A DNA stretch of 32,019 nucleotides, taken from contig PCUD01000166.1 in the NCBI GenBank assembly GCA_002786785.1, positions 82,570 through 114,588 on the forward strand, read 5' to 3'. Below the pieces are notes generated by a model that searched no databases, had not been told where the DNA came from, and saw nothing but the letters and a program-made list of their open reading frames with translations. Numbering within the stretch: the stretch's first letter is position 1; every line of letters starts with the position of its first letter. Made by a program: the position numbers and the translations under genes. The stretch is from Ignavibacteriales bacterium CG18_big_fil_WC_8_21_14_2_50_31_20 (GTDB lineage Bacteria; Bacteroidota; Ignavibacteria; Ignavibacteriales; Melioribacteraceae). Positions 3,969 through 7,277 of the stretch are shown one piece after another.

Positions 3969-4802
3969 TCAATTTGTTAGTAATTTGTTTATTTTTTTTA
4001 ATTGCACAGCGTTTTTAACATTATGTGTGCGAACTATTTTTGCGCCTTTATTAACTGCATCTGTTTCAAGAATAATAGTTGCTATATCTCTGTTTTCAAT
4101 TTCCAAATTTAACGATTTTCCAATTAAAGATTTTCGAGAAACACCAATTAATAAAGGACTTTCTAATTGTTGAAATTTAGCTAAATTTCTTAGTAATTCA
4201 TAATTATGATTTACCCTCTTCCCAAATCCAATGCCCGGGTCAACAATAATTGATGAAACTCCTTTAGCTTTTGTTGAATTAATTTTGTTCATTAAATACT
4301 CATACACTTCTTCAAAAACATTTTCGTATTTTGGATTTTCTTGCATTGTTCTCGGTTTGCCTTGCATGTGCATAATTACAATTGAAGCATTATATTTTTT
4401 TACTACTTCCAGCATATTTTCATCTGCCAAACCAGAAATATCATTTATAATTTTGGCACCTTTTTCTAATGCAGCTTGGGCAACTAACCATTTTGTTGTA
4501 TCAATTGAAATAATTGCATTGGGTTTGTGTTTAAGTATGTTTTCTATTGTTGGAATTGTTCTGTTAATTTCTTCTTCAACTGAAACTTCTTCGGCACCAG
4601 GTCTCGAAGATTCTCCTCCAATATCAATAATATCTGCACCATCTTCAATCATTTGAAAGGCATGCTCAGTTGCCAAATTTAAGTTAAAATATTTCCCTCC
4701 ATCAGAAAATGAATCTGGAGTGACATTTAATATGCCCATTACATAAATTTGATTATCTGAAATGAGTTTTTGATAGAAATTGTTTGACAAAGGATTATCC
4801 AA
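3969..4802 (-). CDS. folP: Dihydropteroate synthase
   Basis: It joins 6-hydroxymethyl-7,8-dihydropterin pyrophosphate with p-aminobenzoate to make dihydropteroate in folate synthesis, and is the sulfonamide target. The TIM-barrel signatures are clear: MGILNVTPDSFSDGG, then IDIGGESSRPGA, SIDTTK, INDISG, MHMQG and DPGIGFGK, ending with IVRTHNV. Length (277 residues) is normal. The start at 4802 is a TTG. The next Met (residue 22) would begin exactly at the first catalytic strand, whereas family members usually carry about 15-25 residues before it, so TTG is preferred. The gene follows the methyltransferase by 10 bp and precedes cdaA by 6 bp. Confidence 0.96.
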   Translation of the reverse strand: MDNPLSNNFYQKLISDNQIYVMGILNVTPDSFSDGGKYFNLNLATEHAFQMIEDGADIIDIGGESSRPGAEEVSVEEEINRTIPTIENILKHKPNAIISIDTTKWLVAQAALEKGAKIINDISGLADENMLEVVKKYNASIVIMHMQGKPRTMQENPKYENVFEEVYEYLMNKINSTKAKGVSSIIVDPGIGFGKRVNHNYELLRNLAKFQQLESPLLIGVSRKSLIGKSLNLEIENRDIATIILETDAVNKGAKIVRTHNVKNAVQLKKINKLLTN

Positions 4803-4812
4803 TATTATTTTG

Positions 4813-5733
4813 CTATTCGAACTTTAACATATTTTCTAAAAGAGCTGTTCTATTTTCTACAATATTTATATATTCTTGATTAATTTCAAAACCTATAAAA
4901 TTTCTGTTGCTTTTTAATGATGCAACTGCTGTTGTACCACTACCGATAAATGGATCAAGAATAACATCTGATGTAAATGAATATAATTGGATTAATCTAT
5001 AAGGTAAATCAACAGGAAAAGGAGCTGGATGACCAATTCGCTTTGCAGACTCTGCATTAAAAGTCCATATAGATTTTGTCCATTCCATAAATTCTTCACG
5101 CGAAATGGTGTCCTTCTTAATTCCCATTTCAACTTTGCTTCTTTCTCTTTTGTAATCACCTTTCGAAAATACTAGAATATATTCGTGAATATCTCTTAAA
5201 ATAGGATTTGAAGCTGACATCCAACTTCCCCAAGCAGTTGAAGGGCTGGCACTAGAAGCTTTATTCCAAATTATTTCACCACGCATATTAAATCCAATAT
5301 CGAGCATAATTTTTGAAATATAGTCGGATAAAGGAATATATGGTTTTCTACCTAGATTTGCTAAATTGATACATGCTCGACCTCCATTTACTAAAACTCG
5401 ATAGGTTTCTGCAAAAACGTTTCTTAACATTTCCAAATATTCATTTAAGGAAAGATCTTCATCATAATCCTTTGAAACATTATAAGGTGGTGATGTAATC
5501 ATTAAATGCACTGAGTTATTAGGTATCATCGACATATCAACAGCGGAACCCAAAATTGTACTATTCAAAAGTTGTTTTGGAAATATATTACTTTCTTTTT
5601 GAACTTCCTTTGTTTGACCAAGCTCATTATACAACTTGGAATTATAAAATTTACTAGAATCATGGTTGCTTCTTCCATTTGTCCCAAATGAACTCGAGAC
5701 GGTTCCTTTTATATTACTATTCTTTTTAATCAT
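4813..5733 (-). CDS. Site-specific DNA methyltransferase of a type II R-M system (probably N4-cytosine)
   Basis: A 306-residue amino-methyltransferase. The catalytic motif TSPPYNV (Ser81-Tyr84) comes first and the AdoMet-binding motif DPFIGSGTTAV near residue 265 comes last, giving the beta-class motif order. SPPY rather than (D/N)PPY favours N4-cytosine methylation, although this does not prove the product. The first ~50 residues are Ser/Asn-rich and precede the catalytic fold; they may be flexible or take part in target recognition. No separate specificity subunit is present. It starts 3 bp after the probable endonuclease gene and ends 10 bp before folP, so all appear to share a transcript. 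The recognition sequence cannot be predicted by reading alone. Confidence 0.9.
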   Translation of the reverse strand: MIKKNSNIKGTVSSSFGTNGRSNHDSSKFYNSKLYNELGQTKEVQKESNIFPKQLLNSTILGSAVDMSMIPNNSVHLMITSPPYNVSKDYDEDLSLNEYLEMLRNVFAETYRVLVNGGRACINLANLGRKPYIPLSDYISKIMLDIGFNMRGEIIWNKASSASPSTAWGSWMSASNPILRDIHEYILVFSKGDYKRERSKVEMGIKKDTISREEFMEWTKSIWTFNAESAKRIGHPAPFPVDLPYRLIQLYSFTSDVILDPFIGSGTTAVASLKSNRNFIGFEINQEYINIVENRTALLENMLKFE

Positions 5734-5736
5734 AAA

Positions 5737-6591
5737 TCACTTATTTATTAGGTTAAGAAATTTCTCTGCTCTTGCAATATCATTTTCTTGGTTAGCAGCA
5801 ATTAATATTATTTCTCCTAACCATCTTTTTGGTAGCATTGAAGAAAAGAAATTCATGTCTGAATTTACAATATCTATAATGTAATTACTCAGCTGATTAT
5901 ATTCACTAAAAGTTTGAAAACCATTTCCAGTTGAGTTTGTAATGTATTCACTAGATGGATTTGGATATACAGAAATAAATCCTTGTATAATTCCAGATTT
6001 CTTTAAATAATCGACTTTATTTAAGTATGACTTTGTTATAGGACTGTTTCCAATTACGATTATTGGAATTTTTGTTGACTCACTTCCAGAGACTCTAATA
6101 TTTATTGATTTACCAATGGCTTTTAACATTGAATCAGAGCGTAAAATTGATGGATTTCCTTTATGAGTTTTATAATCACCTATAAAATTTATATTATTAT
6201 CTTCATAAATATAATTATTCACAATACTCATTTTGATTTCTATAAGAAGTTTAATGTTATCTGCTTTTTGGTGGGTCTCATTTGAATTACAAAATGCCAA
6301 ATCAGCATTACTTTGAGTTGATAATCCCAATTCATTGCAAACTACACCATTAACTGCATAATATCCTAACTCTGCAGCAATTGGTTGAAAAAATTCTTTT
6401 GCCCATTTCTCTGTAAATTGTCCAATTAGGGAATTTCTACTATTTAATAATTGCCCTTCTGCTTGTTCTCCCTTAGGAAAATATGCAAAATATTTACCTC
6501 TCAATTTATAAAATAGTTGCTCAGCTGTTGCGAAATTCTTCAAAGCGGCAGTAAAAAATTCTTTCTCAATGTCTTCATTCCAAAAACTCAT
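5737..6591 (-). CDS. Probable type II restriction endonuclease paired with the adjacent methyltransferase
   Basis: A 284-residue protein that I do not recognise as a named enzyme. A PD-(D/E)xK-like nuclease core is visible: Asp97 in SNADLAF, then about 20 residues later LLIEIKM with Glu118 and Lys120. Glu61 upstream could be a further acidic residue. Size and a position 3 bp upstream of an orphan-type methyltransferase fit a type II restriction enzyme. The start ATG has a gaggg Shine-Dalgarno sequence. No C-protein gene or obvious private promoter separates it from rpe (29 bp upstream). The role is inferred from neighbour and motif; an alternative is another methylation-linked defence nuclease. 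Confidence 0.72.
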   Translation of the reverse strand: MSFWNEDIEKEFFTAALKNFATAEQLFYKLRGKYFAYFPKGEQAEGQLLNSRNSLIGQFTEKWAKEFFQPIAAELGYYAVNGVVCNELGLSTQSNADLAFCNSNETHQKADNIKLLIEIKMSIVNNYIYEDNNINFIGDYKTHKGNPSILRSDSMLKAIGKSINIRVSGSESTKIPIIVIGNSPITKSYLNKVDYLKKSGIIQGFISVYPNPSSEYITNSTGNGFQTFSEYNQLSNYIIDIVNSDMNFFSSMLPKRWLGEIILIAANQENDIARAEKFLNLINK

Positions 6592-6620
6592 AATCCCTCG
6601 AAATTATTTAATATAACATA

Positions 6621-7277
6621 TTATAAAGAAATCAAATTTTTCAACTCAGTTGCTGCAGCAGAGATATTATCTTGTCCAAAGATTGATGAACCAGCAACAA
6701 AAATATCACAACCAGCATTTGCAACTTTATTAATATTTTGAGCCGAAATTCCTCCATCAATTTCTATTTCAAAATTGAGTTTCTTTTCTTCTCTTATTTT
6801 TGCTAATTCAGATATTTTGTTTAAGGTTGATTCAATAAATTTTTGTCCACCAAAACCTGGATTTACGGACATAATTAGTACAAAATCAACAAACTCTAAA
6901 ATTTCACTTAATGTATTTACTGGTGTCGAAGGATTTAATACAACTCCAGCTTTTGCACCTAATTCTTTAATTTTTGCAATAGTTCTGTTTAAATGCACAA
7001 CTTCTTCTTGATGTACTGAAATATAATTTGCACCAGCGTTTATAAAATCCTCAATAAAATTATCGGGGTCTTTTATCATCAAATGAACATCAATTGGCAA
7101 TTTTGTGACTTTACGAACAGCTTTTACAACAACTGGTCCAAAAGTGATATTTGGAACAAACTTTCCATCCATAATATCACAATGAATTATATCGGCTCCT
7201 GCAATTTCTACATAACGTATTTGCTGTGCAAGATTTGAAAAATCGGCAGAAAGAATTGAAGGAGCAATTTTTTTCAT
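6621..7277 (-). CDS. rpe: Ribulose-phosphate 3-epimerase
   Basis: It interconverts D-ribulose 5-phosphate and D-xylulose 5-phosphate in the pentose phosphate pathway. The 218-residue TIM barrel shows the usual signatures: APSILSADF at the N-terminus, HCDIMDGKFVPNITFGP (metal ligands and catalytic Asp), DVHLMI, the phosphate-binding loop SVNPGFGGQKF, and EIDGGI followed by AGSSIF. Length is normal for the family. It begins 4 bp after the PASTA gene, so the two are probably co-transcribed and translationally coupled. Confidence 0.97.
   Translation of the reverse strand: MKKIAPSILSADFSNLAQQIRYVEIAGADIIHCDIMDGKFVPNITFGPVVVKAVRKVTKLPIDVHLMIKDPDNFIEDFINAGANYISVHQEEVVHLNRTIAKIKELGAKAGVVLNPSTPVNTLSEILEFVDFVLIMSVNPGFGGQKFIESTLNKISELAKIREEKKLNFEIEIDGGISAQNINKVANAGCDIFVAGSSIFGQDNISAAATELKNLISL

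What the first reader, a model, noticed from the sequence alone, without database searches (positions are those of the whole stretch)
4813..6591. Restriction-modification pair embedded in a housekeeping gene run
A probable PD-(D/E)xK endonuclease and a beta-class methyltransferase sit between rpe and folP with gaps of only 29, 3 and 10 bp. The nuclease gene comes first, and no controller gene or private promoter is apparent. Type II systems usually need methylation before cutting; here both would be transcribed from a metabolic promoter. The nuclease has only the generic D97...E118-x-K120 pattern and may be a new specificity. Base composition appears like the neighbours, so the insertion may be old.
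Basis: partly seen in the sequence, partly recalled or inferred. Interest (0 to 1): 0.6.

Follow-up and report, generated by a model that had tools for sequence, protein, structure and literature searches.

The report
Nuclease-first restriction-modification pair in metabolic operon
It is a genuine Type II-like restriction-modification gene pair from an uncharacterised but widespread and mobile family, which in this bacterium has dropped into a run of housekeeping genes without the promoter element that half of its relatives carry; the gene order itself is ordinary.

Summary
In detail: rpe, a nuclease-like gene (R), a beta-class DNA methyltransferase gene (M) and folP lie on one strand with gaps of 29, 3 and 10 bp. 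R has no match in Pfam, NCBIfam or PADLOC and only chance sequence hits in the PDB. Yet 204 relatives were found; of the 80 fetched, 77 have the same M family downstream, mostly touching R, and the other three end at a contig edge. D97, E118 and K120 are invariant, and the AlphaFold model (pLDDT 88) has the PD-(D/E)xK core order; its best solved match, AgeI, is weak. So this is a real R-M pair, and nuclease-first order is a fixed family trait with precedent in EcoRI and Eco29kI. The insertion is not old: four genus mates have rpe and folP adjacent without it, and the R tree mixes host phyla. New here: 40 of 79 relatives hold a Bacteroidota-type TAnnTTTG element shortly before R (about 3 expected) and the window does not, so it probably depends on read-through from the rpe operon. 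The same M family also pairs with an unrelated B3-HNH nuclease, including elsewhere in this genome. The recognition site could not be inferred.

The parts
5737..6591 (-). R: predicted PD-(D/E)xK restriction endonuclease, 284 aa; candidate catalytic residues E61, D97, E118, K120; invariant R151-S-D153-S at the start of a helix
   Evidence: invariant residues in 56 homologues; AlphaFold model pLDDT 88 with the alpha-beta-beta-beta-alpha-beta order; best PDB fold match AgeI (E 0.015, probability 0.98)
4813..5733 (-). M: beta-class amino-methyltransferase, 306 aa, motif IV TSPPY, probably N4-cytosine
   Evidence: Pfam PF01555 E 8.4e-50; PDB 2zie E 1e-29; SPPY typical of N4C enzymes (PMC8885841)
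5734..5736 (-). R stop to M start junction (3 bp), probably translationally coupled
   Evidence: R-M gap is mostly between -14 and +30 bp across the family
6592..6620 (-). Left junction rpe|R; the GAGGG before the R start could be a ribosome-binding site; no TAnnTTTG element within 70 bp
4803..4812 (-). Right junction M|folP
   Evidence: homology to genus mates resumes at the folP start
6621..7277 (-). rpe, upstream host gene
   Evidence: 81-88% identical in four genus mates, next to folP there
3969..4802 (-). folP, downstream host gene
   Evidence: 74-80% identical in genus mates

Best explanation
A mobile Type II-like restriction-modification pair that inserted between rpe and folP after this genus diverged. 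R is a PD-(D/E)xK endonuclease and M a beta-class, probably N4-cytosine, methyltransferase guarding the same site; the site is most likely a palindrome, because one R and one small M suffice (inference). R and M are made from one message with linked translation (inferred from the 3-bp gap). Half of the family carries a promoter element just upstream of R; this copy lacks it and is most likely read through from the rpe operon (inferred). How it became established despite nuclease-first order is not shown: either through enzyme properties, or because a related methyltransferase already sat elsewhere in the genome (contig C43); both are speculative.
For: R-M adjacency and order: M follows R in 77 of 80 homologous loci, touching or nearly so except for the loci with an insert, and the three without M are contig ends. 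Invariant D97/E118/K120 and a confident nuclease-like model. Only 2 of 79 columns conserved at 95% deviate in the window R and 1 of 126 in M, so neither is decaying. rpe and folP adjacent, 112-510 bp apart, without the pair in four genus mates, one of which (G001) carries a copy on another contig. Host phylum not clustered on the R tree: 8 Ignavibacteriota rows need 8 changes. TAnnTTTG within 70 bp upstream of R in 40 of 79 relatives against 2.9 in shuffles and 3 of 77 control stretches; absent in the window. The element is also enriched before genes of a non-carrier of the window's own family, 18 vs 6.8 expected.
Against: No activity, recognition site or transcript was measured. The fold match to AgeI is weak (E 0.015, TM-score 0.4). 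The other half of the relatives also lacks TAnnTTTG, and sigma-70-like matches exist near the end of rpe (about chance level), so a different private promoter is not excluded. A TATTTTTG lies inside rpe at 6705.
Confidence: 0.85

Rival explanations
1. The pair keeps a private but unrecognised promoter in the AT-rich junction or the 3' end of rpe and is an independent transcription unit (rival to the promoter-capture part only).
For: Relatives are mostly independent units with a median upstream gap of 195 bp; the junction has TATAAT, and TATTTTTG lies at 6705; promoter-like hits occur but about at chance.
Against: No TAnnTTTG within 70 bp; only 29 bp between rpe and R; among the nearest relatives L003-L007, L009, L011, L012 and L014 have the element 29-33 bp upstream.
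Confidence: 0.35
2. R is no longer an active nuclease and the unit works as a housekeeping methylation system.
For: The window R has a longer end branch than its neighbours, 0.39; decayed R with intact M exists in relatives G047 and G021.
Against: All catalytic and nearly all conserved residues are intact.
Confidence: 0.08
3. An old, vertically inherited insertion, as the first reader suggested from base composition.
For: GC equals that of the neighbours.
Against: Four genus mates lack it at this site; only 9 of 58 genomes (window's own included) carry R at all; R identity to other phyla equals that to the genus mate.
Confidence: 0.05

Closest known systems
EcoRI and Eco29kI R-M operons (nuclease gene first; PMC3874152)
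   Same: R precedes M in one operon; two separate enzymes
   Different: Those have mapped promoters for R, for M inside R, and reverse promoters; none is shown here, and R has no recognised sequence kinship to them
CCGG-family endonucleases, AgeI (PDB 5dwb)
   Same: Best solved fold match; an invariant R-S-D at the N-terminus of a helix resembles their R-(D/E)R recognition motif
   Different: Here the active site is the canonical D97...E118-x-K120, not the permuted PD...K...D/E, and the last arginine is serine
TTHA0409-like beta-class methyltransferases (PDB 2zie)
   Same: Closest solved relative of M by sequence, TSPPY motif, same motif order
   Different: Its partner and specificity were not examined here
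Restriction enzymes with a B3-like domain, such as EcoRII (from memory)
   Same: A B3-HNH nuclease is a second partner of the same M family
   Different: Found at other loci and on contig C43, not at the window locus

Membership tests
Type II restriction-modification system | Separate endonuclease and methyltransferase genes, linked | tested here: met
Type II restriction-modification system | Cuts at a defined site and is blocked by the cognate methylation | not testable with these tools
   needs enzymes; site avoidance was inconclusive
PD-(D/E)xK nucleases | Conserved D ... (D/E)-x-K residues | tested here: met
   D97, E118, K120 invariant in 56 sequences
PD-(D/E)xK nucleases | Core fold with the residues on adjacent strands | tested here: inconclusive
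   Order of elements fits: strands 96-101 and 113-120 after helix 50-74; strand pairing was not measured in coordinates and the AgeI match is weak
CCGG-family endonucleases (AgeI, NgoMIV) | Permuted active site PD...K...D/E | tested here: not met
   canonical E118-x-K120 (definition from PMC6344858)
CCGG-family endonucleases (AgeI, NgoMIV) | R-(D/E)R at the N-terminus of the recognition helix | tested here: inconclusive
   R151-S-D153-S invariant, last residue Ser
Beta-class amino-methyltransferase | Motif IV before motif I | tested here: met
   TSPPY at 80-84, DPFIGSGTT at 260-268
N4-cytosine methyltransferase | SPPY catalytic motif | tested here: met
   invariant TSPPY; motif meaning from PMC8885841
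N4-cytosine methyltransferase | Methylates N4 of cytosine | not testable with these tools
   needs a methylome or an assay
Controller-protein R-M systems | C gene upstream of or overlapping R | tested here: not met
   no ORF between rpe and R; M directly after R

The most novel reading that the evidence does not exclude
A previously undescribed endonuclease family with its own fold variant and specificity, whose methyltransferase family is shared with an unrelated B3-HNH nuclease; in this genome a promoterless copy was captured by a metabolic operon, made safe by a sister methyltransferase of the same specificity already present.
Probability: 0.2. Interest if true: 0.5.

Novelty: new member of a known kind. 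Interest (0 to 1): 0.35.

Why it matters
A nuclease family with 204 detected relatives and no curated profile in Pfam, NCBIfam or PADLOC is a source of a possibly new restriction specificity. The promoter comparison makes a question testable: how a nuclease-first R-M pair survives when it depends on a host promoter. One methyltransferase family with two unrelated nuclease partners is a natural experiment in partner exchange.

Tried and rejected
Sequence search of the PDB with R and with its profile: chance hits only. R in phages and plasmids: none; one contig of the viral collection. Site inference by under-representation in 400-kb samples of five carriers and one non-carrier: CATATG, GTATAC and GAATTC are low in several carriers, but many palindromes were screened, controls are few, and CATATG (392 in 3.81 Mb) is about as frequent in the window's genome as in the non-carrier, so no site is claimed. 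dN/dS against the window failed because of saturation. The small ORFs of the variant loci match no family. Considered and rejected: chance ORF pair, old insertion, C-protein system, CCGG-family membership.

Full report
What is there. On the minus strand the run is coaE, a PASTA-domain protein gene, rpe, R, M, folP, a diadenylate-cyclase-like gene and a glycosyltransferase gene (gene names are my reading of the sequences). Composition does not stand out.

R. The 284-aa protein has no hit in Pfam, NCBIfam or PADLOC and only chance hits by sequence in the PDB. It is nevertheless a well-populated family: 204 relatives in the species-level genome collection, 80 fetched, in Bacteroidota, Ignavibacteriota, Spirochaetota, Elusimicrobiota, Planctomycetota, Thermodesulfobacteriota and others. 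In 56 aligned members E61, D97, E118 and K120 never vary. The model (pLDDT 88, pTM 0.85) gives helix 50-74, strands 78-85, 96-101 and 113-120, then helix 152-166 and strand 177-181: the order of a PD-(D/E)xK core, with D97 at one strand and E118/K120 at the end of the next. The only credible solved match is AgeI (E 0.015, probability 0.98, TM-score 0.4). AgeI belongs to the CCGG family, defined by a permuted active site and an R-(D/E)R motif at a helix start (PMC6344858). Here the active site is canonical, so R is not filed there, although an invariant R151-S-D153-S at a helix start is a hint about how it may read DNA.

M. A beta-class methyltransferase with invariant TSPPY and DPF(I/M)GSGTT. 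SPPY is the motif of most bacterial N4-cytosine enzymes (PMC8885841), so m4C is more likely than m6A; this is inferred.

The pair. In 77 of 80 loci M lies after R, mostly with a gap between -14 and +30 bp; the three loci without M end at a contig edge. Four loci have an insert between them (below). More distant relatives (47-50% identity) also have M nearby. R-first order is therefore a family trait, not a local oddity, and EcoRI and Eco29kI have the same order, with M promoters inside R (PMC3874152). No TAnnTTTG element recurs near the end of R in the family (6 scattered cases), so an internal M promoter of that kind is not indicated.

How it got here. In four genomes of the same genus rpe and folP are neighbours, 112-510 bp apart, with no R-M pair; homology resumes just past the rpe end on one side and at the folP start on the other, and I saw no target-site duplication. 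In the wider group a gene resembling N-acetylglucosamine-6-phosphate deacetylase and a longer folP fill this spot in some genomes (my reading). G001 carries R-M on another contig. Only 9 of 58 genomes, the window's own included, have R. On the R tree host phyla are mixed and eight Ignavibacteriota rows need eight changes (titles of metagenome bins can mislead). The insertion is young at this site; composition says nothing because family members and their hosts are often as AT-rich. The window proteins are intact: 2 of 79 strongly conserved R columns and 1 of 126 M columns deviate.

Promoter. Relatives mostly stand apart from the upstream gene (median gap 195 bp in 39 same-strand cases). In 40 of 79 relatives TAnnTTTG, which I recall as the Bacteroidota -7 promoter element, lies 15-50 bp before R, against 2.9 in shuffles and 3 of 77 in control stretches. 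It is also enriched before genes in a non-carrier of the window's own family and in two carriers. The window has none within 70 bp. So loss of the private promoter on capture, with read-through from the rpe operon, is the best reading, at moderate confidence: half of the relatives lack the element too and may use other promoters.

Variants. In L030, L042, L011 and L074 a small ORF and a B3-HNH protein of about 280 aa (B3 domain E 6.5e-5, below Pfam's own cut-off; HNH by motif) sit between R and an M that lacks its first 58 or more residues. In L173 and on the window genome's own contig C43 the B3-HNH gene directly precedes such a short M without R. So one M family has two unrelated nuclease partners, which suggests, but does not show, one recognition site. 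A methyltransferase of this kind already in the genome could have protected it when R-M arrived; this is speculative.

Limits. No recognition site, activity or transcript is shown. REBASE was not available. The site-avoidance test was inconclusive.

Noticed in passing
L030 6965-8728; L042 6882-8639; L011 2584-4304; L074 1328-2615: A ~60-aa ORF plus a B3-HNH nuclease gene lie between R and an N-terminally shortened M; the truncation points differ between loci (about residues 58, 60, 78 and 216 of M).
   Followed up: partly
L171 1501-3044 (own genome, contig C43): A second, related system in the window's genome: B3-HNH gene followed by a short M about 68-72% identical to the window M, without R; part of the M sequence is masked.
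   Followed up: partly
L092 1280-1462; L182 1492-1692; L181 1501-1698: The same small-ORF family sits in the rpe-folP gap of genus mate G004, before a C5-cytosine-methyltransferase-like gene in the same gene run of G002, and after an unidentified 331-aa gene in G001. It may mark defence inserts.
   Followed up: partly
L304 4001-5738: One contig of the viral collection carries an R-M pair of this family (R 64%, M 74% identity); not checked whether the contig is truly viral.
   Followed up: no
L084; L089 and L090: R broken by an in-frame stop (G021) or split between frames (G047) next to an M that still matches over nearly its whole length.
   Followed up: no
L093, L094, L095, between rpe and folP: A shared short motif (about AAAGCCACTCAC...GGTAGAA) recurs in the rpe-folP gap of three genus mates.
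   Followed up: no
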